The position numbers were made by a program, and so were the translations under genes. Under the pieces are notes generated by a model. That model searched no databases, was not told the origin of the DNA, and saw nothing but the letters and a program-made list of their open reading frames with translations. Positions 846-63,517 of a stretch of 64,000 nt of DNA are shown one piece after another. Source of the stretch: Knoellia locipacati. Its GTDB lineage: Bacteria; Actinomycetota; Actinomycetes; Actinomycetales; Dermatophilaceae. Position 1 is the first letter of the stretch, and each line of letters opens with the position of its first letter. The stretch spans positions 310,001 to 374,000 of the forward strand of contig NZ_BKBA01000008.1 in the NCBI RefSeq assembly GCF_007992835.1, read 5' to 3'.

Positions 846-2111
846 GTGTCGTTGAGTTTCGTGCCAGATGCCGCAGGCGTCGTCGTCATCGGAGCCGGCC
901 CGGCCGGTTCCGCTGCTGCGGCACACCTGAGCGCAGCCGGGTGCGACGTCCTCGTCCTCGAGCGCACGCCCGACGCCTCCGACCGGACCGGCGCCGCGGC
1001 GCTCACGCCCGCAGCCGTCCGCGAGCTCGAGGTCCTCGGCCTCGGTGAGGCCGACACCGCCGGCTGGCACCGCACCACCGGCGTCCGCTTCGTCGGCGGC
1101 GGCATGCGCCTCGCGCTCGCCTGGCCCGACGCCTCCGGCCGTCCGGCCCACGGCCTCGTCACCTCACGTTCCGTCCTCGACGAGACCCTCGTGTCGTATG
1201 CCGTCCGCTCCGGTGCGCGCGTCGTGCGCGGCACGGAGGTCACCGGGCTCACGCGCGACGCCGCCGGCCGCGTCGACGGCGTCGCCACCTCCGGCGGCGC
1301 CGTCCGCGCCGACCTCGTCATCGACGCCTCCGGCGCCACGTCCGTCTCTCACGAGGGCACGACGTCGCGTGGCGCCGTCGCCGTCACCGCCGACTTCGAG
1401 AGCCCCCGCCACACCGACGACCACGTCGAGTCGTGGCTGCGGCTGTCCGCCGGCGACGGCGCGCAGCTGCCCGGGCACGGCTGGATCGTCGGCCGCGGCG
1501 ACGGACACGTCAGCGTCGGTGTCGGCGCCCTCGCCGACGACACGACCGCGACCCCCGACGCCTGCGCCGGAGTCCTCCGCCAGTGGCTCACCGCGTTGCC
1601 CGCGAACTGGCAGCTCACCGAGTCGACGATGACCGGCCCCGTCTCCGGCGCCCGCCTCTCCACCGGCCGCCCCGCCTCGCCCCGATACGCCGACGGTGTC
1701 CTCGCCGTCGGTGACGCCGCGGCCGTCGCCAACCCGGTCACCGGCGAGGGCCTCGCCGCCGCCCTGACCTCCGCGCGCCTCGCCGCCGTCACCGTCGCCC
1801 GTGCCCTCGGGCACCCGGGTGAGGAGCAGCGCGAGGCCGAGCTCACGGCATACGACGCGGTGCTCGCCCGTGCGCTGGGAGGCCACCGGACCCTCGGACG
1901 CGCCGTCGCGCGACTCGCCGACCGCCCGCTCGTCACCCGGCTCGCGACGACGTGGGCCCTGCCGCACGAGCCGCTGATGTCGTTCGTCCTCACCCGCGCC
2001 ACCGCTCCCGCCCCTGCCCACGTTGAGACCGGCGTCACTCCCTCTACGATGGGGCCCGTGACCCGAGCCGCCGCACACCCTGGCACCGAAAGGGGAGTTG
2101 ACCAGCGATGA
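846..2111 (+). CDS. Geranylgeranyl reductase family FAD-dependent oxidoreductase
   Basis: FAD-dependent oxidoreductase of the geranylgeranyl reductase family, about 420 aa. The N-terminal Rossmann motif VVIGAGPAGSAAAAHL lies near residues 13-28, and the second FAD motif (DGVLAVGDAAAVANPVTGEG) is near residues 281-300. In mycobacteria a relative (MenJ) saturates one double bond of the menaquinone side chain; the position between menG and nuo supports the same role here, by inference. The start is uncertain: GTG at 846 sits almost on the AAGG box (841-844), while in-frame TTG at 852 has better spacing. The stop overlaps the nuoA start (ATGA). Confidence 0.85.
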   Translation: MSLSFVPDAAGVVVIGAGPAGSAAAAHLSAAGCDVLVLERTPDASDRTGAAALTPAAVRELEVLGLGEADTAGWHRTTGVRFVGGGMRLALAWPDASGRPAHGLVTSRSVLDETLVSYAVRSGARVVRGTEVTGLTRDAAGRVDGVATSGGAVRADLVIDASGATSVSHEGTTSRGAVAVTADFESPRHTDDHVESWLRLSAGDGAQLPGHGWIVGRGDGHVSVGVGALADDTTATPDACAGVLRQWLTALPANWQLTESTMTGPVSGARLSTGRPASPRYADGVLAVGDAAAVANPVTGEGLAAALTSARLAAVTVARALGHPGEEQREAELTAYDAVLARALGGHRTLGRAVARLADRPLVTRLATTWALPHEPLMSFVLTRATAPAPAHVETGVTPSTMGPVTRAAAHPGTERGVDQR

Positions 2112-2470
2112 GCAACCCCTACGTCCCGATCCTCTTCCTCCTGGCTCTCGGCTTCGTCTTCGCCGCCGGCTCGGTCTTCACCAGCCTCGTGGTCGGACCC
2201 AAGCGCTACAACCGCGCCAAGTCCGAGCCCTACGAGTGCGGCATCCAGCCGTCGCCGCGCGCCGAGGGTGGCGGCCGCGTGCCGATCAAGTACTTCCTCA
2301 CGGCGATGCTCTTCATCATCTTCGACATCGAGTCGGTGTTCCTCTACCCGTTCGCCGTCGCCTTCGACCAGCTCGGGCTCTTCGCGCTCGTCGAGATGGT
2401 CATGTTCATCATCACCGTCTTCGTCGCCTACGCCTACGTGTGGAAGCGCGGCGGTCTGGAGTGGGACTGA
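2108..2470 (+). CDS. nuoA: NADH-quinone oxidoreductase subunit A
   Basis: NuoA of respiratory complex I, 120 aa with three predicted membrane segments (about residues 7-29, 62-84, 90-112). The conserved loop KSEPYECGIQP holds the family cysteine, and FDIESVFLYP is the acidic motif of the second helix. It is the first gene of a complete nuoA-N set, and its ATG overlaps the preceding stop. A short 46-base gap separates it from nuoB. Confidence 0.97.
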   Translation: MSNPYVPILFLLALGFVFAAGSVFTSLVVGPKRYNRAKSEPYECGIQPSPRAEGGGRVPIKYFLTAMLFIIFDIESVFLYPFAVAFDQLGLFALVEMVMFIITVFVAYAYVWKRGGLEWD

Positions 2471-2516
2471 TGAGATTCGCCACCGCTGTGCCTGACCCGA
2501 CTGGAAGGGGTCTCTG

Positions 2517-3113: not shown

Positions 3114-3885
3114 GCGACAAGCCAGCAGAGAAGGCCACCCCTCCCGAGCCCGTCACCGGCTCCGAGGACCTGCACGCCACCGACCTCGACGTCACCGAGG
3201 CCAACGCGTACGGCGACACGGCGCCCGTCCGGATCGGCGAGCGTCAGGGCATGTTCGGCCCGACCAAGGGCAGCGACACCACCGGCTACGGCGGCCTGCG
3301 CACCCCGATCCTCTTCCCGGGAGCGGCGCAGAAGCCCTACGGCGGCTACTTCGACGAGGTCACGGCCACGCTCGAGCAGGCGCTCGGCGACACGGGTGAC
3401 ACGGCATACGGCTCCGCCATCGAGCGGGTCGTCGTCGACCGCGGCGAGCTCACCCTCCACGTGCGGCGCGAGGCGCTGCCGACCGTCGCCCGCGCGATGC
3501 GCGACGACCCGGCCCTGCGCTTCGAGATCTGCACCGGCGTGTCCGGTGTGCACTACCCCGGCGAGGTCGGCCGCGAGCTGCACGCGGTCTACCACCTGCT
3601 CTCGATCACCCACAACCGTCGCGTCCGCCTCGAGGTGAGCGCGCCGGACTCCGACGCGACCATCCCGTCGGTCGTCGACACGTGGCCCGCTGCCGACTGG
3701 CACGAGCGCGAGACGTGGGACATGTTCGGGATCATCTTCGAGGGCCACCCGGCGCTGACCCGGATCCTCATGCCCGACGACTGGCCGGGCCACCCGCAGC
3801 GCAAGGACTATCCCCTGGGTGGAATCCCGGTGGAGTACAAGGGCGGCACCGTCCCGCCGCCCGACGAGCGGAGGTCGTACAACTG

Positions 3886-3886
<1 letters not shown>
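3110..3886 (+). CDS. nuoC: NADH-quinone oxidoreductase subunit C
   Basis: NuoC (30-kDa) subunit of the peripheral arm, 258 aa. The signature is [18 protein letters not shown] followed by [16 protein letters not shown] near the C terminus. About 85 residues of charged, probably disordered sequence precede the conserved domain, as in other actinobacteria. The start ATG overlaps the nuoB stop (ATGA). nuoC and nuoD are separate genes here, not the fused nuoCD of enterobacteria. Confidence 0.95.
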
Positions 3887-5298: not shown

Positions 5299-6491
5299 TG
5301 GAGCACTACGGATTGCAGACGGCCGCCGGGCACCTCACGGTGTCGCCGGAGTCCAAGGAGCCGTATGCCGCGGAGCAGCTCGCGCAGCTGCACGCGGACG
5401 CGGAGCTGGTGCTCGCCCGCTACCCGCAGAAGCGCTCGGCGCTGCTGCCCCTGCTGCACCTCGTCCAGTCTGTCGACGGCTACGTCACCGGTCGCGGCAT
5501 CGACTTCTGCGCCGAGGTCCTCGACCTCACCCGCGCCGAGGTCTCCGGTGTGGCGACGTTCTACACCCAGTACAAGCGCCACCCCAACGGTGAGTACACC
5601 GTCGGTGTCTGCACCAACACGCTCTGCGCGATCATGGGCGGCGACGAGATCTGGGACTCGGTCTCGGACCACCTCGGCATCGGCCACGACGAGACGACCG
5701 AGGACGGCAAGGTCACCCTCGAGCGCATCGAGTGCAACGCCGCGTGCGACTACGCCCCCGTCGTCATGGCCAACTGGGAGTTCTTCGACAACCAGACGCC
5801 GGAGTCGACCAACCAGCTCGTCGACGACCTGCGCTCCGGGGTCCCGGTCAAGCCGACCCGCGGCCCCGACTCGGTCTGCACCTTCAAGCAGATGTCGCGC
5901 GTCCTCGCCGGCTTCCACGATGGTCTCGCCGACCAGGGCGTCGGTGCCGGACCCGCCTCGCTGCGCGGCCTCGAGGTCGCCCACCAGAACGGCTGGGAGG
6001 CCCCCCGGGCCGACCAGGGTGGCGCCAAGGACGGCAGCGGCCAGGAGAGCGACACCCGGGCCAGCGCCGGCGGCGCTGCCGTCGAGGGCAAGGCCCCCGG
6101 ACGCCACAGCTCGACGGACACCCCCGCCAACGACGCCGACGAGAAGCCGGGTGGCAAGACCGCCACGAAGCCGGCGAAGAAGTCGGCCAAGAAGCCCGAG
6201 CAGCCGTCCACCGTCCAGGCGGAGGCCGAGCCGGCCTCGCTGTTCGACGACGGCGCCACGACCGCCGAGGCCGAGCCCAGGGGCGACGCCCCGCTCACCG
6301 GCACCCCCGCCGCCGCCTCCTCGCAGGGCGCGACGCCGCAGACCGGTGGCGACCGCCCGGAGGAGTTCGTCAGCTCCTACGGCGAGGACACGACCGCCCC
6401 CGGTGAGGACGCGGCCAAGGAGCCCGGCTCCACCGAGGCCACCAAGCGCAGGAAGCGCGAGAGCGGCAAGAACGGGAAGGACGACGCATGA
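5298..6491 (+). CDS. nuoE: NADH-quinone oxidoreductase subunit E with long C-terminal tail
   Basis: NuoE (24-kDa) subunit of the NADH module, 397 aa. The [2Fe-2S] ligands are in CTNTLC (about residues 107-112) and CNAACDYAP (about 147-155). The thioredoxin-like domain ends near residue 205. The remaining 190 or so residues are low-complexity, rich in Ala, Pro, Lys, Glu and Gly with AKKSAKKPE-like repeats, and probably disordered. E. coli NuoE is about 166 aa, so the tail more than doubles the protein. The start overlaps the nuoD stop. Confidence 0.94.
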
Positions 6492-7801: not shown

Positions 7802-10278
7802 CTGTGACCGACGACAAGAAGACGGCGACGACCGACAAGCCCGCCGTCGAGATGGTCGACCTCTCGATCGACGGCATCGACGTCTCCGTCCCCAAGAACA
7901 CCCTCGTCATCCGGGCGGCCGAGGAGGCCGGGATCGAGATCCCGCGCTTCTGCGACCACCCCCTCCTCGAGCCGGTCGGCGCCTGCCGCCAGTGCCTCGT
8001 CGAGGTCGCGACGCCGGGCCCCGACGGGACGCTGCGTCCGATGCCGAAGCCCCAGGCCTCGTGCACCATGACGGTCTCGCCCGGCATGGAGGTCAAGACC
8101 CAGCACAGCTCGCCCGTCGCCGACAAGGCGCAGCAGGGCGTCATGGAGCTTCTCCTCATCAACCACCCGCTCGACTGCCCGGTCTGCGACAAGGGCGGCG
8201 AGTGCCCCCTGCAGAACCAGGCGATGAGCAGCGGCCGTCCGGTGAGCCGCTTCGAGGACGTCAAGCGGACCTACCCCAAGCCGATCAACATCTCGAGCCA
8301 GGTCCTCCTCGACCGCGAGCGCTGCGTTCTCTGTGCGCGCTGCACCCGCTTCTCCGACCAGGTCGCCGGTGACCCGTTCATCGCCCTCGTCGAGCGTGGG
8401 GCGCTGCAGCAGGTCGGCATCTACGAGGAGAAGCCGTTCGAGTCGTACTTCTCCGGCAACACCGTCCAGATCTGCCCCGTGGGCGCGCTCACCGGTGCCG
8501 CCTACCGCTTCCGCGCCCGTCCGTTCGACCTCGTGTCGACGCCGAGCGTGTGCGAGCACTGCGCGGCCGGCTGCGCGACGCGCACCGACCACCGTCGTGG
8601 CTCGGTCCTGCGCCGCATGGCCGCCAACGACCCGGCGGTCAACGAGGAGTGGAACTGCGACAAGGGCCGCTGGGCCTTCCAGTACGCCACGACCCCCGCC
8701 CGCCTCGAGCTGCCGCTCGTGCGTGAGGACGGCGAGCTCCGCGTCGCCTCCTGGCGCGAGGCCCTCGAGGTCGCCGCCGCCGGGCTCAAGGCGGCCTCGG
8801 CCGCCGGTGTGCTCGTCGGTGGCCGCGTCAGCACCGAGGACGCCTACGCCTACGGCAAGTTCGCGCGCACGATCCTCGGCACCAACGACGTCGACTTCCG
8901 TGCGCGTCCGCACTCCGCCGAGGAGGCCGACTTCCTCGCCTCGAGCGTCGTGGCCACCGGTCCCGAAGGCGGCGCGGTCACCTACGCCGACCTCGAGTCG
9001 GCCAAGACCGTCGTCCTCGCGGGCTTCGAGCCCGAGGACGAGAGCCCGATCGTCTTCCTTCGCCTGCGCAAGGCGTCGCGCAAGTCCAAGACGGCCGTGT
9101 ATGCCGTGTCGCCCGTCGCGACCCGCGGCCTCGCCAAGGTGTCCGGTCGCCTCATCCCGACCGCGCCCGGCACCGAGCCCGAGGTCCTCGACGCCCTCGG
9201 CAAGGGCTCGGCCAGCGGTGCGCCCGGCGACGGCCCCGACACCGTGCGTGACGCCGCCGAGGCGCTGCGCGGCGAGGGCGCGATCATCCTCGTCGGCGAG
9301 CGTCTCGCGACCGTGCCCGGCGCCCTGAGCGCCGCCGCACGTCTGGCCGAGACCACCGGCGCCCGGCTCGCCTGGGTCCCGCGGCGTGCGGGGGAGCGCG
9401 GTGCCCTCGAGGCCGGCGCCTTCCCGACGCTGCTGCCCGGCGGACGCCCGGTCACCGACGCCGCGGCCCGTGCCGACGTCGCCACCGCATGGGGAGTCGT
9501 CGGCCTGCCCGATGCCGCCGGTCGTGACTCCGCCGCCATCCTCGAGGCCGCGCGCACCGGCAAGGTCGGCGCCCTCGTCGTCGGTGGCGTCGACCCGCTC
9601 GACTTCGGTCGCGCGGACGCCCTGCAGGCCTTCGAGAACACCTTCGTCGTCTCGCTCGAGATCCGCGAGTCCGCGGTCACCGCGCTCGCCGACGTCGTCC
9701 TGCCCGTCGCGGCCCACGCCGAGAAGGCCGGCAGCTTCGTCGACTGGGAGGGGCGCGTGCGTCCGTTCCAGCAGGCGATCGAGACCGGCTTCGTCAGCGA
9801 CCACCGAGCGCTCGACATGCTCGCCGACGAGCTCGGTGAGTTCCTCGGCTGCCGCACCGTCGGCGAGATCCGCTCCGAGATGGAGCGCATCGGCCCGGCC
9901 ACCGGCGCCCGGGTGGGCGCACCCAGCGTCGACGCCGGTGAGGTCCCCAGCGCCGAGGACGGGCACCTCGTCCTCGCGACGTGGCGCCACCTGCTCGACA
10001 AGGGCCTGCTCCAGGACGGCGAGCCGTTCCTCGCGGGCACCGCGCCGAAGGCCGCGGCCAAGGTCTCGCCGGTGACCGCCGACTCGCTCGGTGTCTCCGA
10101 CGGTGACGCCGTCACCGTCGTCGCCGGCGACTCGACCGTCACGGTCCCCGTCGCCGTCACCGACATGGCCGACCACGTCGTCTGGCTCCCGACCAACTCC
10201 GAGGGCTGTGACCTGCGGGGCACGCTCGCGGACGCCCCGGGCATCCGCGTCTCCGTCACCAAGGTGGACCAAGCATGA
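7798..10278 (+). CDS. nuoG: NADH-quinone oxidoreductase subunit G
   Basis: NuoG (75-kDa) subunit, 826 aa. The N-terminal ferredoxin-like [2Fe-2S] domain has [19 protein letters not shown]. Further cluster ligands are in [16 protein letters not shown] and [10 protein letters not shown], then a molybdopterin-oxidoreductase-like domain begins at [17 protein letters not shown]. The C-terminal half is Ala/Val/Gly-rich and less conserved, as in other actinobacterial NuoG. It overlaps nuoF and nuoH by four bases each, implying coupled translation. Confidence 0.97.
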
Positions 10279-11738
10279 GCACCCTTCTCAGCCTCCACGA
10301 GGCGGCCGGCACGTTCAGCGAGAGTGCGCTGCACGGCATACAGACGCTTGCTGCCGAAGGCAAGGACAACCCGCGGGCCGACTTCTCGGACACCCCGTGG
10401 TGGCTGTCGCTGGTCAAGGCGCTCATCATCTTCGTCTACCTGCTCGTCTCGACGCTCATGGTCATCTGGTTCGAGCGCCGGGTCATCGGCCGGATGCAGC
10501 AGCGCCCCGGGCCCAACCGCAACGGCCCGTTCGGCCTCCTGCAGACCCTCGCCGACGGCATGAAGGCGATGCTCAAGGAGGACAACACCCCCGCCAAGGC
10601 GGACCGGTTCGTCTTCACCCTGGCGCCGCTCATCACCGCGACGATGTGCTTCATCGGCTTCGCGATCATCCCGCTCGCGGGTGAGGTGAGCATGTTCGGG
10701 CACCGCACGCCGTTCCAGCTCGCCGACTCGCCGATCGCCGTGCTCTTCGTGCTCGCGATCGCCGGCATCGGCATCTACGGCGTCGTGCTCGCCGGCTGGT
10801 CCTCGGGCTCGCCCTACCCGCTCATGGGTGGCCTGCGCTCCTCGGCGCAGATGATCTCCTACGAGATCGCGATGGGCCTCTCGCTCGTCGCCGTCTTCCT
10901 CTACAGCGGCTCGATGTCGACCTCGCAGATCGTCGGCTCGCAGGGCAGCGTCTGGTACATCGTCCCGGCGTTCTTCAGCTTCTTCGTCTACGTCATCACG
11001 ATGGTCGGCGAGACCAACCGCCTGCCGTTCGACCTCGCCGAGGGCGAGGGCGAGCTCACCGGTGGCTTCCACACCGAGTACGGCTCGATGCGCTTCGCCA
11101 TGTTCTTCCTCGGCGAGTACATCAACATGTTCACCGTCGCGGCGCTGGCCACGACGATGTTCCTCGGTGGCTGGCAGGCGCCTCCCGGCATCGCCGCCAT
11201 CAACGACGGCATGTTCAACGAGGGCTGGTGGGGCCTGCTCTGGTTCACCATCAAGCTCTGGATGTTCATGTTCGTCTTCGTGTGGCTGCGCGGCTCGCTG
11301 CCCCGCACGCGCTACGACCAGTTCATGCGCTTCGGCTGGAAGTTCCTCATCCCGGCCACCCTCGGGTGGGTCGTGCTCGTGGCGTTCTTCCGCGGTGCGC
11401 AGAACGGCTGGTTCGGGGACGCCGCGCTCGAGATCGCCGGCCGCCGCTTCCCGGTGTCGTCGCTGGCGATCGTCGGGCTGGTCGCCGTCGGCGCGCTCGC
11501 CTTCGGCTGGTGGTGGGACAACCGCGCCATGGCCAGGGAGGCGGCCGCCAACGAGACCGCGCCCGAGGAGATCGACCCGTATGCCGGTGGGTTCGTCGTG
11601 CCGCCGCTGCCCGGTCAGCGTCTGCGCGAGACCGCCCGTGTCGGCGCGCCCGCGCTGCCCGAGGCCGACCCCGTGACCGAGAGGCCGAGCGGTCCTGCCG
11701 TGTTCGACTTCACCGACAAGGAGGCCCCTCGTGGCTGA
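10275..11738 (+). CDS. nuoH: NADH-quinone oxidoreductase subunit H
   Basis: NuoH, 487 aa, the membrane subunit that joins the peripheral arm to the proton pumps and completes the quinone cavity. Typical motifs are [32 protein letters not shown] and [24 protein letters not shown], with eight or so membrane segments. The C terminus carries about 80 extra polar residues beyond the usual end. ATG overlaps the nuoG stop. Confidence 0.97.
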
Positions 11739-13450: not shown

Positions 13451-15403
13451 GTGAACTCATTGGCACTGCTCGCCGCGGAAGGTGAGGTGGCCTCGGCCAC
13501 CGGCATCACGGCATACGCATGGCTTCTCGTCCTCCTCCCGCTCGCGGGAGCCGGGCTCCTCCTCCTCGGAGGCAAGGCCACGAACGCCTGGGGCCACCTG
13601 CTCGCGACGGCCCTGTCCTGGGCCAGCTTCGTCGTCGGTCTCCTCGTGCTGCTCGCGATGGTCGGTCGCGGCCACGAGGAGCGCGCCGCCCACGTGGGGG
13701 GGTGGAACTTCATCCCCGCGGGGCAGTTCCAGCTCGAGACCGGGCTGCTCGTCGACCAGCTCTCGATCGCGTTCGTCCTGCTCATCACGTTCGTCGGGTC
13801 GCTCATCCACGTGTACTCGATCGGCTACATGGCGCACGACCCGAACCGGCGCAAGTTCTTCGCGTACCTCAACCTCTTCGTCGCATCCATGTTGTTGTTG
13901 GTGCTGGCCGACTCCTACCTCCTGCTGTTCGTCGGCTGGGAGGGCGTGGGTCTGGCGTCGTACCTGCTCATCGGCTTCTGGAACCACAACCCGGCGTACG
14001 CGACCGCGGCCAACAAGGCGTTCTTCGTCAACCGTGTCGGTGACGTCGGCATGTCGATCGCGATCATGCTCATGTTCGCGACGTTCGGCTCGGTCGACTT
14101 CGCCACCGTCCACGCGGGCGCGGCGGAGGCCGGCTCGACGACGATGACGGTCCTCGGGCTGCTGCTGCTCGTCGGCGCCTGCGCCAAGTCCGCGCAGTTC
14201 CCGCTGCAGTCGTGGCTGGGCGACGCCATGGCCGGTCCCACCCCGGTCTCGGCGCTCATCCACGCGGCGACCATGGTCACCGCCGGCGTCTACCTCGTCG
14301 TCCGGTCGCACTCGATCTTCGACGCCGCGCCCAACGCGCAGCTCGCCGTCGCCATCGTCGGTGCGATCACCCTGCTCTACGGCGCGATCGTCGGTTGCGC
14401 CAAGGACGACATCAAGAAAGCCCTCGCCGCCTCGACGATGAGCCAGATCGGCTACATGATGCTCGCCGCGGGTCTCGGCCCGGTCGGCTACGCCTTCGCG
14501 ATCTTCCACCTCATCACCCACGGCTTCTTCAAGGCCGGGATGTTCCTCGGCGCCGGCTCGGTCATGCACGGCATGAAGGACCGCGTCGACATGCGCGGCT
14601 TCGGTGGCCTGTCCGGGTTCATGAAGATCACCTGGGTGACCTTCGGCCTGGGCTGGCTCGCCATCCTCGGTGTCCCGCCGTTCTCGGGCTTCTGGTCCAA
14701 GGACAAGATCATCGAGGCCGCGTTCATCGGCGAGGGCTGGCGACCGTGGGTCTTCGGTGGCATCGCGATGATCGGCGCCGGGATCACCGCCTTCTACATG
14801 TCCCGCCTGTTCTTCATGACCTTCCACGGCAAGAAGCGCTGGGTCGACGAGCACGAGGACGCCGAGCGCGGGGTGCACCCGCACGAGTCGCCGCTCACCA
14901 TGACCGTCCCGATGATGGTGCTCGCCGTCGGCTCCGGCCTGCTCGGTCTCGTCCTGTCGTGGGGTGGCATGTTCACCCACTGGCTCGAGCCGGTCGTCGG
15001 CGCCCACGGTGAGGAGCACCCGGTCCTCGCGGTGCCCGTCATCATGGCGCTCACGCTGCTGCTCGTCGCCGGCGGCGCGGCCTACGCGTGGATGCTCTAC
15101 TGGCGCGACGAGGTCGCGGTCGTTGCACCGCGTGGCTCGCTCGTCACGCAGGCCGCTCGCGCCGACCTCTACCAGGACGCGATCAACGAGGGCCTGTTCA
15201 TGCGGCCCGGCACGCACCTCACCCGCGCGCTCGTCTTCACCGACGGCAAGGGTGTCGACGGTGTCGCCGGCTCGCTGGCCGCCATGATCGGTGGCGCGTC
15301 CTCGCGACTGCGCCGCGTCCAGACCGGCTACGCCCGGTCCTATGCCCTGACGATGCTCACCGGCGTCGTCGCCGTCCTCGGAGCCCTGTGGGTGATGAAC
15401 TGA
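13451..15403 (+). CDS. nuoL: NADH-quinone oxidoreductase subunit L
   Basis: NuoL, 650 aa, the distal antiporter-like proton-pumping subunit. Motifs include [48 protein letters not shown] and the lysine-bearing helix [18 protein letters not shown]. The GTG start at 13451 is preceded by TAAGGGG, whose first bases are the nuoK stop. About 15 membrane helices are predicted. It is complete. Confidence 0.97.
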
Positions 15404-19605: not shown

Positions 19606-19697
19606 CGTCGTCCACAGCCGGTATGCCGTCCGCTCACCGTCCACAGTCCGCTCACCGTCGCTGGCGGGACCACATCTGAGCAGCCCACGCTGGCTGG

Positions 19698-27872: not shown

Positions 27873-29737
<1,865 letters not shown>

Positions 29738-33145: not shown

Positions 33146-33219
33146 CTTCGGAGCGAGGTGAGCGTGCGCCACCGTGCGGTTCGGGCGAGTGCCGCACCAC
33201 GGCATACGACGGGCCTACC

Positions 33220-38424: not shown

Positions 38425-38520
38425 CCACGCACGCCGCGGGACGGCATACGCACGACGTCCGCGACCGTGGTCGCGAAGCCGACCAGCACTGCGGACGCAA
38501 AGGTTCGCTACCCGCAGGTA

Positions 38521-51406: not shown

Positions 51407-53869
51407 GTGCCATCTCTGACTCGCGACGAAGCCCGGCAGCGGGCGCAGCTCATCTCCGTCCAGCGCATGGAGGTCGACCTCGACCTCGACCGCGGCACGG
51501 AGCACTTCGGGTCCAGCACCCGGATCACGTTCTCCTGCAGCGCTCCTGGCAGCGCGACGTTCCTCGACCTGCGCGCGGTGAGCGTCGAGACCATCGAGCT
51601 CAACGGCATACCGGTCGACCCGGCCGCGGTCGTCGACGGGCGGCTGCCGCTCGCGGACCTCGGGGCCGACAACGTCGTCGAGGTCCGGTCGACGATGGCC
51701 TACTCGCGCGACGGCCAGGGGCTGCACCGCAGCACCGACCCGGCCGACGGCGAGGACTACGTCTACGGCCACCTCTTCCTCGACGCGGCCCCCACGGTCT
51801 TCGCGTGCTTCGACCAGCCGGACCTCAAGGCGTCGTATGCCGTGTCCGTCCGCGCGCCCCAGGAGTGGGTCGTCCTCGGCAACGGCCGCGCGACGCGGAC
51901 CGCGCCGGGCCAGTGGGACCTCAGCGAGACGCTGCCGCTCGCGACGTACTTCGTCACCGTCTGCGCCGGGCCCTACGTCTCGGTCCACGACGAGCACGAC
52001 GGCATCCCGCTCGGCATCCACGCCCGCCGCAGCCTCCAGCGCGAGCTCGAGGCGCACGGGCCGCAGATGTTCGAGGTGACGAAGCAGTCGTTCGACCACT
52101 ACCACCGCACCTTCGACGTCCGGTACCCGTTCGGCGACTACGACCAGGTCTTCGTGCCCGAGTTCAACGCCGGGGCGATGGAGAACCCCGGCTGCGTGAC
52201 CTTCCGCGACCAGATGCTCTTCCGCGGTGCTGCCACGCGCCAGGAGGTCATGCAGCGGAGCAACACCATCGCGCACGAGATGGCGCACATGTGGTTCGGC
52301 GACCTCGTGACGATGCGCTGGTGGGACGACCTCTGGCTCAACGAGTCGTTCGCCGAGTTCATGGCCTACACCGCCACCTCGCGGGCGACCGAGTTCACCG
52401 ACAGCTGGGTCGAGTTCGGCATCTCGCGCAAGCAGTGGGGCTACGCCGCCGAGCGGGCGCCCTCGACCCACCCGGTCGCCGGCTCGCCCGCACCGGACGC
52501 CCAGAGTGCCCTCGCGAACTTCGACGGCATCTCCTACGCCAAGGGCGCCTCCGTCCTGCGCCAGCTCGTCGCCCACATCGGCGAGGAGGCGTTCAACGCC
52601 GGTGTCACCGCCTACCTCCGCTCGCACGAGCACTCCAACGGCGAGCTCTCCGAGTTCCTCGCGACGATGGAGGAGGCGCACGGCTCCTCGCTCGCCGACT
52701 GGAGCGCGGCGTGGCTCGAGACCGCCGGTGTCGACGTCCTCGCCCTCGACCGCGACGGCACGCTGACCCGCACCACCCCGCAGGCCCACCCCGCCGACCG
52801 CTCGCACGCGCTCGACGTCGCCGGCTTCGACGACGGCGCCGAGGTCTTCCGCACCCGGCTCACCCTCGACACCGCGTCCGCCACCGTCGACGGGGTGCAG
52901 CGCGAGGCTGCCCTCCTCGTGCCCAACGCCGGCGACCTGACCTGGGCCCAGGTCGACCTCGACGCCGAGTCGCTCGCCGCCCTGCCGAGGGAGCTGCCCC
53001 GGCTCGACGACTCGATCGCCCGCTCGGTGCTGTGGGGCGCCGTTCTCACCGGTGTCTACCGCGCGAGCGTCGACCCTGCGGTCGCCCTTGACGTCTTCAC
53101 CGCTGCCTGGCCGCACGAGAGCGACGACGCCCTCATGTCGCGGGTGGCGCTCGCCTTCACCGACCGGCTCGTGCCGCAGTTCCTGCCACCGGAGGGTGTC
53201 GCAGGGGCCAGGGCACGTCTCGCCAACGCCGCCCTCACGACGTTCGAGGTCGCCGAGCCCGGCTCGGACCGTGCCCTCGTCGCGGCCCGCGTCCTCGCCG
53301 CCACGACGACGGACGAGGCGCGGCTCGAGGCCTGGGTCTCCGGCCGGTCGCTGCCGACCGAGCTCGAGCACGACTCCGACTTCCGCTGGATCGTGCTCCA
53401 GACCATGGCCCGTCTCGGCCTCGCCGACGAGCACCGCATTGCCGCGGTCGAGGCCGACGACACGACCCTTTCGGGACGCCTCGCCGGACTGGCCGCGCGA
53501 GCGGCGCGACCTGGCACGCGCGAGAAGGCATGGGCCTGGTCCGAGATCTCCGGCAACCGCGAACGCTCCAACTACGAGCTCAACGCCCTCGCGACCGGGT
53601 TCTGGTCCAGCGGCTCCCTCGAGGACCTGCGCCCGTATGCCGCGCGCTACGTCGCGGACATCCCTCGCCTCGCGGAGTGGCTCGGGGCCGACGCGCTCGA
53701 CCGGGTGGCGACGCTGGCCTTCCCCTCGCGCATCGTCGAGACCGAGACGGTGGCTCTCGTGCGGGCCGCGATGGAGCGTCCGGACGTCACGTCCGGCGTG
53801 CGCCGCTCGATGGGCGACGAGCTGAGCAAGCTCGAGGAGGCGCTGGCCTCACGCTCCCGCTGGAGCTGA
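51407..53869 (+). CDS. pepN: Aminopeptidase N
   Basis: M1 family zinc aminopeptidase, 820 aa. The GAMEN exopeptidase motif (NAGAMENPG) precedes the zinc site HEMAH (290-294) with the third ligand Glu313 in WLNESFAEF. A helical ERAP1-like C-terminal domain occupies the last 350 residues. It removes N-terminal residues from peptides in the cytoplasm. GTG start; full length for the actinobacterial type. Confidence 0.95.
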   Translation: MPSLTRDEARQRAQLISVQRMEVDLDLDRGTEHFGSSTRITFSCSAPGSATFLDLRAVSVETIELNGIPVDPAAVVDGRLPLADLGADNVVEVRSTMAYSRDGQGLHRSTDPADGEDYVYGHLFLDAAPTVFACFDQPDLKASYAVSVRAPQEWVVLGNGRATRTAPGQWDLSETLPLATYFVTVCAGPYVSVHDEHDGIPLGIHARRSLQRELEAHGPQMFEVTKQSFDHYHRTFDVRYPFGDYDQVFVPEFNAGAMENPGCVTFRDQMLFRGAATRQEVMQRSNTIAHEMAHMWFGDLVTMRWWDDLWLNESFAEFMAYTATSRATEFTDSWVEFGISRKQWGYAAERAPSTHPVAGSPAPDAQSALANFDGISYAKGASVLRQLVAHIGEEAFNAGVTAYLRSHEHSNGELSEFLATMEEAHGSSLADWSAAWLETAGVDVLALDRDGTLTRTTPQAHPADRSHALDVAGFDDGAEVFRTRLTLDTASATVDGVQREAALLVPNAGDLTWAQVDLDAESLAALPRELPRLDDSIARSVLWGAVLTGVYRASVDPAVALDVFTAAWPHESDDALMSRVALAFTDRLVPQFLPPEGVAGARARLANAALTTFEVAEPGSDRALVAARVLAATTTDEARLEAWVSGRSLPTELEHDSDFRWIVLQTMARLGLADEHRIAAVEADDTTLSGRLAGLAARAARPGTREKAWAWSEISGNRERSNYELNALATGFWSSGSLEDLRPYAARYVADIPRLAEWLGADALDRVATLAFPSRIVETETVALVRAAMERPDVTSGVRRSMGDELSKLEEALASRSRWS

Positions 53870-54813: not shown

Positions 54814-54942
54814 GTGAACTCCGTTGTTCGGCGGCGTTGGTTACCTCCACGTAACCAGAAATCGCGCCGCCGTGACGCGCCAGGGTGGCGCCGATCACGT
54901 CCCGGCCCCACGGCATACGCACGCACGTCCGGAGGCAAACGC

Positions 54943-55687: not shown

Positions 55688-55722
55688 GAAGGCCCCTGAC
55701 CGGTATGCCGGTCGGGGGCCTT
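55688..55722 (+). terminator. Terminator of tRNA-Tyr
   Basis: A strong hairpin with about 16-bp arms, running GAAGGCCCC...GGGGGCCTTC, immediately downstream of the tRNA. Its loop contains the recurrent octamer GTATGCCG (55703-55710). It also lies just past the end of the convergent glycosidase gene. Confidence 0.75.
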
Positions 55723-57774: not shown

Positions 57775-58524
57775 ATGCCCGTGTGGGCTCAGGCTGGACT
57801 GTGGGGGCTGCTCGCGGGCGGTGCGCTCGTCGTCGGCGCCGCCGTGGCGTGGTTCGTGCGCGTCCCGCAGCGGGTCGTCGCGACGATCATGGCGTTCGGC
57901 GCCGGCGTCCTCATCTCGGCGCTCTCGTTCGACCTCGTCGACGAGGCCCAGCGGACCGGCGGGCTCGTGCCGACCGCCCTGGGCTTCCTCGGGGGCGCGG
58001 TCATCTATGTCGCCGCCAACGTCCTCCTCTCCAAGCGCGGGGCCCGGCACCGCAAGCGCTCGCACGAGATCCAGGGCTCCGAGGACGAGACGCCCGGCAG
58101 CGGCGCGGCGATCGCCATCGGCGCCCTGCTCGACGGCATCCCGGAGTCGATCGTCCTCGGGCTGACCCTGCTCACCGGCGAGGGTGTGGGCATCGCGGTG
58201 TTCATCGCGATCTTCCTGTCGAACCTGCCCGAGGGTCTCTCGAGCGCTGCCGGCATGAAGGCCTCGCACCGCAGCGCGCGCTACGTCTTCGGCGTCTGGG
58301 GCGCCATCGCCGTGGCCAGCGGTCTGGCGGGGCTCCTCGGCGTCCTGCTGCTCGAGGGCGCGTCCCCCGAGACCGTCGCCGCCATCACGGCGCTCGCGGC
58401 CGGTGCGATCCTCGCGATGGTCGCCGACACGATGATCCCCGAGGCCTTCGAGAAGACCCACCTGTATGCCGGTCTCGCCGCGACGGTCGGCTTCCTCACC
58501 GCGTTCGTCATCGGCCACGCCTAG
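57775..58524 (+). CDS. ZIP family metal transporter
   Basis: 249 aa with eight predicted helices. The family metal motif is visible in helices 4-5: GALLDGIPESIVLG and FIAIFLSNLPEGLSSA (normally H/N-x-x-P-E). The variable loop contains HRKRSHE, a typical His-rich metal loop between helices 3 and 4. Likely zinc or another divalent cation. ATG with GAGAGGA upstream; divergent from the GH15 gene. Confidence 0.88.
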   Translation: MPVWAQAGLWGLLAGGALVVGAAVAWFVRVPQRVVATIMAFGAGVLISALSFDLVDEAQRTGGLVPTALGFLGGAVIYVAANVLLSKRGARHRKRSHEIQGSEDETPGSGAAIAIGALLDGIPESIVLGLTLLTGEGVGIAVFIAIFLSNLPEGLSSAAGMKASHRSARYVFGVWGAIAVASGLAGLLGVLLLEGASPETVAAITALAAGAILAMVADTMIPEAFEKTHLYAGLAATVGFLTAFVIGHA

Positions 58525-58533
58525 GCGCCACCG

Positions 58534-59667
58534 TCAGGGCGTGAGGATCTGCCGGACCTCGGTCCCCGCGTGCAGCCGGTCCAGCGCCGCGTTGACGTCG
58601 TCGAGGGGCACCGAGCGTGAGGTGACGAGGGCATCGGCAGGCAGGACCCCGGCGGCATACAGGGCGAACAGGCGCGGCAGGTCGCGGCGCGGGACCGACG
58701 AGCCCATGTAGGAGCCGAGGATCGACTTCTCCTCGCCGACGAGCGACGCGATGGGGACCGAGATCTGGTGCCGCGGGTGGGGGAGCCCCGCGACGACGAT
58801 GCGTCCGCCGCTGCGCGTCGCGGCGTATGCCGTCGCGAGCGCGCCCGGGTGCCCGGCCGCCTCGATCGCGACGGTCACGCCACCCCGGGTCAGCTCGCGA
58901 AGGTGCTCGACGGCGTCGTCGCCGGCGAGGACGCCGTGCGTCGCGCCGACCGCCGTGGCGGCGTCGAGCTTGGCCGGCACGGTGTCGACGGCGATGACGG
59001 GGTGGGCCCCGGCGAGGGCGGCCGCCATGACGGCGGAGATCCCGACGCCACCGAGCCCGATGACGGCGACGGCCTCGCCCGGGCGCACGACCGCGGTGTT
59101 GAGGACCGCGCCGGCCCCGGTGAGGACGGCGCACCCGAAGACCGCCGCCACGTCGAGCGGCACCTCGTCGGGGACGGGCACGAGCGAGCGCGGGGAGACG
59201 ACGGTGAGCTCCGTGAACGCCGAGACGCCGAGGTGGTGGTGGAGCTCGGCGCCGGACGCGTCGCGGAACGGGCGTCGGCCGGTGACGAGCCGTGCCTCGC
59301 GGTTGGCGGCCTGGGCGTCGGCGCACCGCACCGGGTGGCCACCGGCGCAGTCGGCGCAGTGGCCGCAGGAGGGTACGTAGGAGCAGACGACCCGGTCGCC
59401 GGGCGCGACGTCGGTGACGCCGGCACCGACCTCCTCGACGACACCGGCCGCCTCGTGCCCGAGCACCATCGGCAGCGGGCGGGGACGGTCGCCGTTGACG
59501 ACCGACAGGTCGGAGTGGCACAGGCCCGCGGCGGTGATCCGCACGAGCACCTCGCCGGGACCGGGCGGCTGGAGCGTGACCTCCTCGACGCTGAGCGGGG
59601 CCGACCGGGCGAACGGCTGGTCGTCGGTGGACCGGCGCAGCACGGCCGCCCTCGTCGTGATCGTCAT
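58534..59667 (-). CDS. Zinc-dependent alcohol dehydrogenase
   Basis: 377 aa medium-chain dehydrogenase/reductase. CHSDLSV and GHEAAGVVEEVG carry catalytic zinc ligands; CGHCADCAGGHPVRC holds the structural zinc; GLGGVGISAV is the NAD-binding Rossmann motif. FGCAVLTGAGAVLN is typical of class III-like/ arylalcohol dehydrogenases. GGAAGG precedes ATG 59667. Substrate not assignable. Confidence 0.9.
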   Translation of the reverse strand: MTITTRAAVLRRSTDDQPFARSAPLSVEEVTLQPPGPGEVLVRITAAGLCHSDLSVVNGDRPRPLPMVLGHEAAGVVEEVGAGVTDVAPGDRVVCSYVPSCGHCADCAGGHPVRCADAQAANREARLVTGRRPFRDASGAELHHHLGVSAFTELTVVSPRSLVPVPDEVPLDVAAVFGCAVLTGAGAVLNTAVVRPGEAVAVIGLGGVGISAVMAAALAGAHPVIAVDTVPAKLDAATAVGATHGVLAGDDAVEHLRELTRGGVTVAIEAAGHPGALATAYAATRSGGRIVVAGLPHPRHQISVPIASLVGEEKSILGSYMGSSVPRRDLPRLFALYAAGVLPADALVTSRSVPLDDVNAALDRLHAGTEVRQILTP

Positions 59668-59769: not shown

Positions 59770-60360
59770 ATGGCTGACGGAGGGGTCGCCGGGCTCGTGC
59801 TCGCGGCAGGCGCGGGACGGCGCATGGGGGGACCCAAGGCGCTGCTGCGCCTCACGCCGTCGGGCCCGTCGCTCGTCGAGACCGCGGTGACCCGCCTGCA
59901 CGACGCAGGGGTGGGCGACGTCCACGTCGTCGTCGGCTCGGCGGCCGAACAGGTGACCCAGCGGGTCGAGCGGGCCGGCGGCATCGTCGTCGCGGCGACC
60001 GACTGGGCCGAAGGCATGGGCGCCTCGCTGCGCCGGGGTCTCGAGGCACTGACCGACACCGGTGCGGACGCTGCGCTGCTCATGCTCGTGGACCTGCCCG
60101 ACGTGGTCGCCGAGGTCCACGCCCGGCTCCTCGAGGCGGCCGACGACGAGGGTGAGCTCACGGCGGCACTGGTGCGGGCGGCATACGACGGTCTGCCCGG
60201 ACACCCCGTCCTCCTCGGCCGCGCGCACTGGGCCGCGGTGCGCGAGAGCGCGGTCGGCGACTCGGGCGCTCGCGACTACTTCAGGGCCCAGCGGCCGAGG
60301 CTCGTCGAGTGCTCGGACCTCGCGACCGGGCGGGACATCGACAGGCCCGCTGACGTCTGA
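59770..60360 (+). CDS. MocA-like nucleotidyltransferase
   Basis: 196 aa. LAAGAGRRMGGPKALL is the NTP-transferase signature of the MobA/MocA group, and LLMLVDLPDV contains the metal-binding Asp. Such enzymes attach a nucleotide to the molybdenum cofactor for xanthine dehydrogenase/CO dehydrogenase-type enzymes. It is next to CoxD-, CoxE- and XdhC-like genes, supporting this role. Confidence 0.85.
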   Translation: MADGGVAGLVLAAGAGRRMGGPKALLRLTPSGPSLVETAVTRLHDAGVGDVHVVVGSAAEQVTQRVERAGGIVVAATDWAEGMGASLRRGLEALTDTGADAALLMLVDLPDVVAEVHARLLEAADDEGELTAALVRAAYDGLPGHPVLLGRAHWAAVRESAVGDSGARDYFRAQRPRLVECSDLATGRDIDRPADV

Positions 60361-61277: not shown

Positions 61278-61281
61278 GGTC

Positions 61282-62409
61282 GTGACACCCTCTCGGCCCG
61301 TCGTTCGGCCCGCCGACGAGGTCCTCCTCGGCTTCGCTCGTGCCCTGCGGGCTGCCGGTGTGGCCGTGACCGCAGACCGCGAGCGCACCTGGCTGCTCGC
61401 CGCCGCCACCGTCGGTCTCGAGGACCAGGCGGGCGTGTATGCCGCGGGGCGGGCCACGCTCTGCGGCTCGCCTGCCGACCTCGAGAGGTACGACCTCGTG
61501 TATGCCGTGTGGTTCGGTGCCCAACGTCCCGCGGCTGCACGCCGGGCGCCGTCTCGCCCCCCGACGACGATGGCCGACCTGCGTGACGGCCGCGACGGTG
61601 ACGGCTCTGACGAGGGTGAGGAGCTCGACGCGGACGACGTGCGGGCTCGGGCCAGTGCCACGGAGGTGTTGCGGCACAGGGACATCGCCTCGATGTCGGC
61701 CCGTGAGCGAGCCGCCCTGGCGCGGATGTTCGCGACCCTGCGCCCGCGCCCGCCGCGACGCCGCACCCACCGCACGTCCCCGTCGAGGCGGGGCCGGGTC
61801 GACGCCCGCGCGACGCTGCGCGAGATGGTCCGACGGCACGGCGAGCCCGGGCCGGTCCGGCGGCGCCGTCGTGCCGAGCGGCCGCGCCGGGTCGTCGTCC
61901 TGCTCGACGTCTCCGGCTCGATGAGTGCCTACGCCGACGCGTTGCTCCGCCTCGCGCACGCGTGGTGCCGGACGCCCGGTCCCGTCGAGGTCTTCACCCT
62001 CGGCACGCGGCTCACCCACGTCACGGCGGCGCTGCACCAGCGCGACCCCGACCGCGCCCTCGTCGCCGCCGGGCTCACGATCCCCGACTGGTCGGGTGGC
62101 ACGCGTCTCGCCGACGGACTCAAGGCGTTCCTCGACCGCTGGGGGAGGCGTGGCATGGCCCGCGGTGCCGTCGTGGTCCTCGTGAGCGACGGGTGGGAGC
62201 GGGGCGACCCCGAGGGCCTCGCCGAGCAGATGCGCCGCCTGCACGCGCTGGCCCACCACGTCGTCTGGGCGAACCCGCACCGCGGGCACGACGCCTACGA
62301 GCCGGTGCAGCAGGGCATCGTCGCGGCCCTGCCGTACGTTGACTCCTTCGTCGCGGGTCACTCGATGGCCGCGTTCGCCGAGCTGCTGGAGGTCGTCGCC
62401 GATGCGTGA
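61282..62409 (+). CDS. VWA domain protein, CoxE-like
   Basis: 375 aa. A C-terminal von Willebrand A domain with the MIDAS motif LLDVSGSMS (DxSxS) and a later DGWERGDPEG. The N-terminal half resembles CoxE. A strongly basic Arg-rich linker precedes the VWA domain. GTG start at 61282. Works with the preceding ATPase in metallocofactor insertion, by family knowledge. Confidence 0.85.
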   Translation: MTPSRPVVRPADEVLLGFARALRAAGVAVTADRERTWLLAAATVGLEDQAGVYAAGRATLCGSPADLERYDLVYAVWFGAQRPAAARRAPSRPPTTMADLRDGRDGDGSDEGEELDADDVRARASATEVLRHRDIASMSARERAALARMFATLRPRPPRRRTHRTSPSRRGRVDARATLREMVRRHGEPGPVRRRRRAERPRRVVVLLDVSGSMSAYADALLRLAHAWCRTPGPVEVFTLGTRLTHVTAALHQRDPDRALVAAGLTIPDWSGGTRLADGLKAFLDRWGRRGMARGAVVVLVSDGWERGDPEGLAEQMRRLHALAHHVVWANPHRGHDAYEPVQQGIVAALPYVDSFVAGHSMAAFAELLEVVADA

Positions 62410-63517
62410 GGTGCTGCGCGAGCTGCGCGACTGGTGGGAGGCGGGTGAGCCCGTGGCGCTGGCGACGGTCGTCGACACGTTCAGCTCGTCACCGCGCCCG
62501 CCCGGTGCCGCGATGCTCGTCGGGCCCGACGCCACCGTCGTCGGCTCGGTGTCCGGAGGGTGCGTCGAGGGTGCCGTCTACGAGGTCGGGCAGTCCGTCC
62601 TGGCCTCTGCCACAGCAGAGCTCGCGCACTACGGCATCGCCGACAGCACGGCATACAGCGTGGGTCTGTCGTGCGGCGGAGAGCTCGACGTCTTCGTCGA
62701 GCGGGTCGACCGTGAGAGCTTCTCCGAGCTGGGCGGTGTCGCCGACGACATCGACGCCGGGCGCCCTGTCGCCGTCGCCACCGTCGTCGCACACCCGGAC
62801 CCGACATGGGTGGGGCGCCGGCTCGTCGTCAGGCCGGACTCGGTGGTGGGCGAGCTCGGCAGCGACCGCGCCCACGACGCCGTCACCGACGACGCCCGCG
62901 GACTGCTCGACCACGGCACGACCGAGACCCTGACCTACGGACCCGACGGCGAGCGACGCGGTGAGGGGATGCGGGTCTTCGTCGCGTCGTACGCACCGAA
63001 GCCGCGAATGATCGTCTTCGGCGCCATCGACTTCGCGGCGGCGGTCGCCGAGATGGGTGCCTTCCTCGGGTATGCCGTGACCGTGTGCGACGCGCGCCCG
63101 GTCTTCGCGACGGCGGCGCGGCTGCCGGCGGCGGACGAGGTGGTCGTTGCCTGGCCGCACGCCTACCTGCGTGACGAGGCGGCTGCGGGGCGGGTCGACG
63201 GGCGCACGGTGCTGTGCGTGCTCACCCACGACCCCAAGTTCGACGTGCCCCTGCTCGAGGTGGCGCTCCGGCTGCCTGCCGTCGCCTACATCGGGGCGAT
63301 GGGCTCGCGCCGCACCCACGACGACCGGATGCGGCACCTGCGCGAGGCGGGGCTCACCGAGACCGAGCTGTCGCGGCTGTCGTCACCGATCGGGCTCGAC
63401 CTCGGCGGGCGCACCCCGCAGGAGACGGCGGTGTCGATCGCCGCCGAGATCGTCGCGCTCCGGTGGGGCGGGGCGGGCGACCGGCTCACCGAGCGACAGG
63501 GCCCGATCCACACCTGA
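62402..63517 (+). CDS. xdhC: XdhC/CoxI family maturation factor
   Basis: 371 aa. An N-terminal XdhC_CoxI domain (WWEAGEPVALATVVDTFSSSPRPPGAAMLV...GSVSGGCVEGAVYE) and a C-terminal Rossmann domain with YIGAMGSRRTHDDRMRHL and GLDLGGRTPQETAVSIAAEIVALR. The protein delivers sulfurated molybdenum cofactor to its target. The cluster is missing structural dehydrogenase genes within the window. It overlaps the VWA gene by 8 bases. Confidence 0.9.
   Translation: MREVLRELRDWWEAGEPVALATVVDTFSSSPRPPGAAMLVGPDATVVGSVSGGCVEGAVYEVGQSVLASATAELAHYGIADSTAYSVGLSCGGELDVFVERVDRESFSELGGVADDIDAGRPVAVATVVAHPDPTWVGRRLVVRPDSVVGELGSDRAHDAVTDDARGLLDHGTTETLTYGPDGERRGEGMRVFVASYAPKPRMIVFGAIDFAAAVAEMGAFLGYAVTVCDARPVFATAARLPAADEVVVAWPHAYLRDEAAAGRVDGRTVLCVLTHDPKFDVPLLEVALRLPAVAYIGAMGSRRTHDDRMRHLREAGLTETELSRLSSPIGLDLGGRTPQETAVSIAAEIVALRWGGAGDRLTERQGPIHT

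What the first reader, a model, noticed from the sequence alone, without database searches (positions are those of the whole stretch)
1196..63077. Overabundant octamer GTATGCCG selected at the DNA level
About 52 copies were counted by eye, roughly one per 1.2 kb, with both orientations common (30 versus 22). At about 72% GC the base frequencies predict about two in 128 kb of both strands. Copies fall in different codon phases: x-TAT-GCC, xCG-GCA-TAC, GGC-ATA, CGT-ATG-CCG and GTA-TGC-CGT. They thus force rare codons such as TAT, GCA and ATA: the ATA isoleucine codons I noticed (10334, 20339, 27803, 39970, 43522, 51604) all lie in this motif. Copies also occur outside genes. Protein sequence cannot explain this. 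Density and two-strand balance resemble Haemophilus or Neisseria uptake sequences more than KOPS; a Chi-type or modification-linked sequence is also possible. The extended form GTATGCCGT is most common.
Basis: partly seen in the sequence, partly recalled or inferred. Interest (0 to 1): 0.88.

Follow-up and report, generated by a model that had tools for sequence, protein, structure and literature searches.

The report
Uptake-sequence-like DNA tags in actinobacteria
An eight-letter DNA word recurs about once per 1.3 kb in this actinobacterium, inside and outside genes, and relatives carry other words in the same way; it looks like a self-recognition tag for taking up DNA, a trait known to me only from two families of Gram-negative bacteria.

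Summary
The window holds 52 GTATGCCG (30 + 22). In 454 kb of the contig there are 342, against 11.3 after synonymous-codon shuffling, with no strand bias; the assembly has 1,408 GTATGCCGT against 15 of the reversed word. All six codon phases and intergenic DNA are enriched, 13 neighbour pairs under 60 bp apart are inverted (2 are not), and codons in the motif are conserved at synonymous sites.

Other genera carry other words: GGATGCCG (7 genomes) or CGAAGGGG (7 genomes). One genus carries GTATGCCG and GGATGCCG in inverse amounts. A second family carries GGATGCCG or CGGATGCC, and two Demequina strains carry GGACGATGC (1,494 and 1,294 copies). The host has comEA, comEC and tad pilus genes.

Best explanation: DNA-uptake-sequence-like tags with dialects, used by a Tad-pilus competence system. 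Anatomy is shown; uptake and receptor are inferred and untested. Com and tad genes are near universal, so they do not predict the word. Chi and KOPS are contradicted by lack of polarity and of RecC. A methylation/repair-driven HIP-like sequence is the main rival.

The parts
1196..1203 (+). GTATGCCG
1846..1853 (-). GTATGCCG
3402..3409 (-). GTATGCCG
5363..5370 (+). GTATGCCG
9099..9106 (+). GTATGCCG
10334..10341 (-). GTATGCCG
11579..11586 (+). GTATGCCG
13509..13516 (-). GTATGCCG
17609..17616 (+). GTATGCCG
18843..18850 (-). GTATGCCG
19621..19628 (+). GTATGCCG
19847..19854 (+). GTATGCCG
20339..20346 (-). GTATGCCG
23386..23393 (+). GTATGCCG
24045..24052 (-). GTATGCCG
25251..25258 (+). GTATGCCG
25382..25389 (-). 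GTATGCCG
26395..26402 (-). GTATGCCG
26663..26670 (+). GTATGCCG
27048..27055 (-). GTATGCCG
27803..27810 (+). GTATGCCG
28550..28557 (+). GTATGCCG
30455..30462 (-). GTATGCCG
30592..30599 (+). GTATGCCG
33200..33207 (-). GTATGCCG
34116..34123 (+). GTATGCCG
36108..36115 (+). GTATGCCG
38442..38449 (-). GTATGCCG
39476..39483 (+). GTATGCCG
39970..39977 (-). GTATGCCG
   Evidence: opposite to 40030, 60 bp apart, genic
40030..40037 (+). GTATGCCG
   Evidence: opposite to 39970, 60 bp apart, genic
41010..41017 (+). GTATGCCG
42644..42651 (+). GTATGCCG
43522..43529 (-). GTATGCCG
44007..44014 (+). GTATGCCG
46317..46324 (+). GTATGCCG
46578..46585 (-). GTATGCCG
49322..49329 (+). GTATGCCG
49402..49409 (-). GTATGCCG
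51604..51611 (-). GTATGCCG
51835..51842 (+). GTATGCCG
53635..53642 (+). GTATGCCG
54911..54918 (-). GTATGCCG
55703..55710 (+). GTATGCCG
58464..58471 (+). GTATGCCG
58653..58660 (-). GTATGCCG
58825..58832 (+). GTATGCCG
60179..60186 (-). GTATGCCG
61437..61444 (+). GTATGCCG
61500..61507 (+). GTATGCCG
62649..62656 (-). GTATGCCG
63070..63077 (+). GTATGCCG

Best explanation
GTATGCCG (often followed by T) is a DNA-uptake-sequence-like self tag of a naturally competent actinobacterium. A surface receptor of the competence machine, probably a pilin or pilus-tip protein of a Tad/Flp pilus or another factor acting before ComEA/ComEC, binds DNA carrying the word, so DNA of close kin is taken up and recombined in preference. 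Fragments that gain the word by point mutation are transferred more often, so the word accumulates to about one per 1.3 kb, mostly where the protein can bear it and between genes, where some inverted pairs form hairpins. When receptor specificity shifts, a new word (GGATGCCG, CGAAGGGG, and in other families CGGATGCC or GGACGATGC) replaces the old one: dialects. Shown: abundance, both-strand balance, all-phase and intergenic enrichment, hairpins, synonymous conservation, dialects, presence of comEA, comEC and tad genes. Inferred: competence, uptake, the receptor, molecular drive.
For: Density one per 1.33 kb (342 in 454 kb), close to the Neisseria and Haemophilus figures that I recall. No strand bias in any of nine full 50-kb bins, e.g. 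14:14 where genes run 46:7. Intergenic 1.67/kb vs 0.62/kb genic. 13 opposite-orientation neighbour pairs under 60 bp against 2 same-orientation pairs; spacing CV 0.83 vs 0.99 for uniform random placement, 0 of 2000 simulations as even. Of 9 intergenic pairs in the 454 kb, 6 have perfect arms of 13-25 bp; of 4 pairs in or partly in genes, none exceeds 11. Flanks not conserved beyond T at +9, so copies were not transposed. In 7 same-genus relatives 170 of 225 site-by-relative pairs keep the exact word, against 29-52% of genic background 8-mers; GCA kept 56 of 63 inside vs 57 of 270 outside; GCC 87 of 91 vs 3714 of 5811. One-base dialect GGATGCCG in 7 of 119 genomes at 2,099-4,480 copies, the other 112 at 241-1,336, with intergenic excess and hairpins in the two sampled; genus g44 has both words in inverse amounts. 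Further words in f19 and Demequina. comEC in 115 of 119 genomes, comEA beside comEC in 18 of 20 loci looked at, T2SSE-family ATPases in 118 of 119. In M. luteus tad genes and comEC are required for transformation (PMC4322843, passages). USS/DUS in terminator hairpins: PMC1852404 (passages); DUS dialects and a genome with two dialects: PMC3630211 (passages).
Against: No uptake or competence experiment exists here. comEC and T2SSE ATPases are near universal in the family, so they do not predict the word. No receptor was found; type IVa pilus PilM is in 5 of 119 genomes and not in this one, so the Neisseria type of receptor system is absent. Two motif-rich genomes, G079 and G067, lack flp and tadE beside tadA in my gene calls. 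None of the 24 one-mismatch neighbours is over-represented and some are depleted (GTACGCCG 31 vs 65, GTATGCGG 0 vs 10); a loose uptake bias would be expected to leave near-matches. 21 of 53 genera have none of the three words in the genomes sampled. CGAAGGGG is unrelated in sequence to GTATGCCG. That the hairpins are terminators is weak: in the 454 kb only 0-4 T stand in the 12 bases after either side of a hairpin (expected 1.7), convergent gaps are no richer (1.60/kb) than tandem (1.64) or divergent ones (1.83), and density is 2.81/kb in the 60 bp after stops against 1.78/kb before starts. In G158 (f19) all 7 close inverted pairs lie in genes.
Confidence: 0.64

Rival explanations
1. A HIP-like iterated sequence: a DNA methyltransferase with a coupled mismatch-repair bias creates and keeps the word, as has been proposed for HIP1 of cyanobacteria, and a change of methyltransferase changes the word.
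For: HIP sequences also are replaced by alternate words in some genomes, with a matching methyltransferase (PMC4390886, abstract). The motif is sharply defined and its one-mismatch neighbours are not enriched, some depleted, as a conversion process would give. G075 carries a real palindrome CGCCGTACGGCG.
Against: GTATGCCG, GGATGCCG, CGAAGGGG and GGACGATGC are not palindromes. Inverted pairs form intergenic hairpins in four sampled family genomes (G000, G033, G024, G044), which methylation does not explain. Intergenic density is 2.7 times the genic one.
Confidence: 0.17
2. A binding site for a chromosome-organising or nucleoid protein that needs a site every kilobase or so on either strand.
For: Over-regular spacing, balance of strands, enrichment between genes.
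Against: Inverted hairpin pairs and one-base dialect changes between and within genera are not known to me for such proteins; 21 of 53 genera of the family have none of the three words.
Confidence: 0.13
3. A Chi-type recombination hotspot or KOPS/AIMS-type polarity signal.
For: Overabundant octamer; Chi is also an octamer (recalled).
Against: 168 forward and 174 reverse on one contig, balanced in every full 50-kb bin. RecC is absent from all 5 own-genus genomes searched and, over the family, is in 24 of 71 genomes with one of the three words and 23 of 48 without (the weak sub-cut-off hit G010 not counted). AddAB- or AdnAB-type nucleases were not profiled.
Confidence: 0.03
4. A by-product of favoured dipeptides and codons.
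For: Tyr-Ala and Ala-Tyr phases hold 193 of 246 genic copies.
Against: Codon shuffles that keep protein and codon usage give 11.3; intergenic 92 vs 1.4 and rare phases are enriched; the motif forces rare ATA, TAT and GCA codons and these are conserved.
Confidence: 0.01

Closest known systems
DUS of Neisseriaceae (receptor ComP, type IVa pilus)
   Same: Non-palindromic short word, about one per kb (recalled), both strands, inverted pairs forming hairpins, one-base dialects, two dialects in one genome.
   Different: Unrelated sequence, actinobacteria, Tad instead of type IVa pilus genes, no known receptor, uptake not tested, hairpins without a clear T tract.
USS of Pasteurellaceae
   Same: Density (recalled), hairpins (PMC1852404, passages), a preferred reading frame (PMC2346458, abstract).
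   Different: No extended flanking consensus seen here; different phylum and machinery.
HIP1 and alternate HIPs of cyanobacteria
   Same: Very many copies kept at DNA level, alternate words in related lineages.
   Different: HIPs are palindromes linked to methyltransferases; these words are not palindromes, and methyltransferases were not profiled here.
Flp/Tad-pilus-dependent transformation of Micrococcus luteus
   Same: comEA, comEC and tad genes of the same kind are present in this genome and family.
   Different: The term 'uptake sequence' occurs 0 times in the main text of PMC4322843.

Membership tests
DNA uptake sequences (DUS/USS) | Short word, hundreds to thousands of copies, both strands, beyond codon expectation | tested here: met
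DNA uptake sequences (DUS/USS) | Intergenic enrichment and inverted pairs forming hairpins | tested here: met
   four sampled family genomes
DNA uptake sequences (DUS/USS) | Hairpins act as transcription terminators | tested here: inconclusive
   no T tract in the own genome, no excess in convergent gaps, modest excess after stops; termination itself not testable
DNA uptake sequences (DUS/USS) | Competence machinery in the genome | tested here: met
   comEC, comEA, T2SSE ATPase, T2SSF and TadE in own genome; second tad locus with DUF4244 Flp read in relative G003, not read in the own genome
DNA uptake sequences (DUS/USS) | Machinery co-occurs with the word | tested here: inconclusive
   comEC 115 of 119, T2SSE 118 of 119: near universal, cannot discriminate
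DNA uptake sequences (DUS/USS) | Sequence-specific uptake or transformation | not testable with these tools
   needs culture
DNA uptake sequences (DUS/USS) | Dedicated receptor (ComP-like minor pilin on a type IVa pilus) | tested here: not met
   PilM_2 in 5 of 119, not in own genome; ComP itself was not searched for, and no Tad-type receptor was identified. Hence I claim it works like a DUS, not that it is a neisserial-type DUS system
DNA uptake sequences (DUS/USS) | Dialects in related lineages | tested here: met
Chi (RecBCD) | Orientation polarity and RecBCD | tested here: not met
KOPS / AIMS | Strand polarity along the replichore | tested here: not met
   one 454-kb stretch of one contig; origin not located
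HIP | Palindromic word | tested here: not met
   sequence itself
HIP | Cognate orphan methyltransferase | not tested
   no methylation data; methyltransferases not profiled

The most novel reading that the evidence does not exclude
DNA uptake specificity by sequence tags evolved in Gram-positive actinobacteria: several families carry their own tags and dialects, read by a Tad-pilus competence machine with a still unknown receptor, and one genus is caught in the middle of a dialect switch. This would be an independent origin, or a far wider spread, of a trait known to me only from Neisseriaceae and Pasteurellaceae.
Probability: 0.58. Interest if true: 0.95.

Novelty: new variant of a known kind. 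Interest (0 to 1): 0.88.

Why it matters
If true, species-specific transformation by sequence tags is not a Gram-negative peculiarity. It would predict natural competence in many actinobacterial genera (32 of the 53 genera sampled in one family carry one of three words), help in getting DNA into them, and offer many replicate dialects with which to find the receptor and to test how such tags arise and switch. Even under the HIP-like rival, iterated non-palindromic words with dialects in actinobacteria would be unexplained.

Tried and rejected
Presence/absence profiling: comEC, PilM, T2SSE ATPases and RecC over 119 family genomes; none follows the motif. Comparison by eye of tad loci of 18 genomes showed no gene present only in motif-rich genomes; not a systematic test. 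High-order Markov scores in the window alone do not single the octamer out, because its 7-mers are inflated too. GTACGCCG in G047 and G055 was first taken as a third dialect; it is enriched in several phases but hardly between genes in the 80-kb samples (3 vs 0.6 and 2 vs 0.7) and is better written GTACGNCG, so I keep it apart. G009's GGATGCCG excess (27 vs 7, intergenic 2 vs 0.6) is not convincing. Of the other motif-poor genera sampled, none gave a convincing word. Survey of other families: 22 samples of 20 kb or less from 14 families, 2 clear hits, both f19, and one weaker (G128); 6 further samples were dropped because their first contig was short, G134 with 13 kb among them. A third f19 genome, G239, is weak in 20 kb (CGGATGCC 13 vs 2.5, GGATGCCG 10 vs 4.0). 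Survey of named loci: 41 of the 50 given were long enough; hits L083, L084, L085, weak L086. In one search one of 13 handles (L128) was not held and not searched. In the conservation test 7 of 8 same-genus relatives were used; G003 was left out. Two-genome conservation with L083 was too small to tell (4 of 7 vs 0.30). Literature: searches showed no report of an uptake sequence in actinobacteria among the listings that I read; the library is open-access only, and listings were capped.


Full report
What was checked. The window (C8:310001-374000 of a 3.59-Mb, 19-contig assembly) has 30 + 22 copies of GTATGCCG. The whole assembly has 712 + 696 GTATGCCGT against 6 + 9 of the reversed word. I read 454 kb of the same contig and found 342 GTATGCCG, 168 forward and 174 reverse. 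TATGCC occurs 372 times there and 358 of these are TATGCCG, so the hexamer hardly exists outside the motif. Shuffling synonymous codons among all called genes (protein and codon usage kept) and resampling intergenic DNA by first-order Markov gives 11.3, sd 3.5, highest 21 in 20 shuffles.

Anatomy. Core GTATGCCG; after TATGCCG comes T in 53%, and G precedes it in 96%; other flank positions carry under 0.25 bit, so the copies are not pieces of a longer repeat. None of 24 one-base variants is over-represented; GTACGCCG (31 vs 65) and GTATGCGG (0 vs 10) are depleted. Copies lie in all six phases, most in G|TAT|GCC|G (105) and CG|GCA|TAC (88), and between genes at 1.67/kb against 0.62/kb in genes. 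Under 60 bp apart, 13 neighbour pairs are opposite and 2 same. Nine of the 13 are intergenic, and 6 of these 9 have perfect arms of 13-25 bp, e.g. C8:67422 with 25-bp arms and a 4-base loop; the 4 others, in or partly in genes, have arms of 8-11. No such intergenic hairpin lies in the window itself. I could not show that they terminate transcription: T counts in the 12 bases beside them are 0-4 (expected 1.7), and convergent gaps are not richer than others. Spacing is more even than uniform random (CV 0.83 vs 0.99, 0 of 2000 simulations). No full 50-kb bin shows strand bias.

Selection on DNA. In 7 of the 8 same-genus relatives (G003 left out), aligned to 30-51 kb of the window at 83-90% identity, 170 of 225 motif-by-relative pairs are exact, against 29-52% for other genic 8-mers. 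Where the amino acid is kept, the codon is kept more often inside the motif: GCA 56 of 63 vs 57 of 270, GCC 87 of 91 vs 3714 of 5811, TAT 79 of 92 vs 38 of 68, TAC 60 of 63 vs 1344 of 1539. Pairs share ancestry, so these are not independent counts. ATA: 21 of 22 in the motif.

Distribution. All 9 genus genomes are rich, 885-1,469 copies of GTATGCCGT. In 119 family genomes, 61 (28 of 53 genera) have at least 100 copies and at least twice the control, 46 have under 40, 12 lie between (the thresholds are mine). None of 273 genomes of 19 other families of the order reaches 100 of this exact nonamer; the highest has 44, its control 45.

Dialects. Motif-poor genera were sampled. Two, G033 and G024, have GGATGCCG as the top word (74 vs 11.7 and 58 vs 10.3 in 80 kb), with intergenic excess 25 vs 0.8 and 12 vs 0.7 and three intergenic inverted pairs each. 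G044 has CGAAGGGG (54 vs 2.8 in 60 kb, intergenic 28 vs 0.7, eight intergenic inverted pairs). Whole-genome counts are bimodal: GGATGCCG 2,099-4,480 in 7 of 119 (g17, g26, g44) and 241-1,336 in the other 112, G009 being the highest of these and the next 1,040; CGAAGGGG 1,813-3,180 in 7 of 119 (g37, g38) and 87-396 in the other 112. The four g44 genomes carry both words: GTATGCCGT 462, 436, 163, 132 with GGATGCCG 2195, 2099, 4480, 3619, an inverse relation that reads as a switch in progress; one of the four is only 83% complete. In all, 71 of 119 genomes and 32 of 53 genera have one of the three words.

Wider. An unbiased score that asks for excess in several phases recovers the motif, or its one-base shift, in 6 of 7 motif-rich 20-kb controls (G079 failed). 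Applied elsewhere it found GGACGATG(C) in both Demequina loci; whole-genome counts of GGACGATGC are 1,494 and 1,294 against 14 and 13 reversed, and 61-143 in the 10 other genomes of that call; in 121 kb of D. pelophila 62 vs 6.1, intergenic 22 vs 0.3, one intergenic inverted pair. In f19, G158 has GGATGCCG 103 vs 16 in 60 kb (intergenic 11 vs 0.5; its seven close inverted pairs all in genes), G142 has CGGATGCC 36 vs about 5-6 with two intergenic inverted pairs, and G239 is weak. The names of f1 and f19 were not given; from MAG PHYC1 and recall I think f1 is near Phycicoccus/Dermatophilaceae, unproved.

Machinery. The own genome has comEC (PF03772, lactamase domain) beside comEA (SLBB and HHH) on C17, and a tad cluster on C2 (T2SSE, T2SSF, TadE). 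A second tad locus (T2SSE, DUF4244 Flp, TadE-like, Tad-like; the last two just under Pfam's cut-offs) was read in the relative G003 and, in varying completeness, in other genera; G079 and G067, both motif-rich, lack flp and tadE there in my gene calls. In M. luteus two tad clusters and comEC serve transformation (PMC4322843, passages).

Mechanism. Uptake bias plus recombination accounts for point-mutational origin, even spread, tolerance-driven placement, dialects and the presence of com and tad genes. The main gap is the lack of any discriminating gene: com and tad-type genes are near universal in the family. A methylation/repair origin like that proposed for HIP1 (PMC4390886, abstract) could also give alternate words and the depletion of near-matches; non-palindromy and hairpins speak against it. 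Chi and KOPS fail on polarity and, for RecBCD, on RecC.

Verdict. I rate the uptake-sequence reading at 0.64, works-like rather than member-of, since the type IVa pilus system of Neisseria is absent and uptake is untested.

Noticed in passing
L055:9063-11458 (G075): comEC appears split over two frames in G075, a motif-poor genome in a genus with motif-rich members; assembly error or real frameshift not decided.
   Followed up: no
L055, L079, L080 (G075): Palindrome CGCCGTACGGCG occurs five times in 60 kb as overlapping GTACGGCG pairs, HIP-like.
   Followed up: partly
L051, L072-L074, L179 (G047); L054, L069-L071, L180 (G055): GTACGNCG words (GTACGCCG, GTACGACG) enriched in several phases, not clearly between genes; perhaps a looser dialect.
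   Followed up: partly
L086 (Nocardioides sp. Iso805N): GTACGCCG 20 times in 21 kb, expectation 5.1; similar to G047 and G055.
   Followed up: no
L047 about 7902-8200 (G026): Interspersed inverted repeats with ACCGGCGT/ACGCCGGT in clusters, REP-like.
   Followed up: no
G023 and G070 genomes: The reversed control word TGCCGTATG is commoner (154, 180) than the motif (49, 55); unexplained.
   Followed up: no
L212 (G128, family f7): CGCCTCGG 23 vs 5.8 in 20 kb with several phases enriched; possible further word.
   Followed up: no
L175 (G034): GTATGACG 10 vs 1.1, 4 intergenic, beside GTATGCCG 14 vs 1.3: this genus may tolerate a second base at position 6.
   Followed up: no
L173:623-2080 (G079): A gene that looks to me like a cytosine DNA methyltransferase lies near a tad locus that lacks flp/tadE in my gene calls; recognition by eye only.
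   Followed up: no
window 53-18527: Respiratory complex I (nuo) gene run and neighbouring quinone-type genes, named by eye from translations; ordinary.
   Followed up: no
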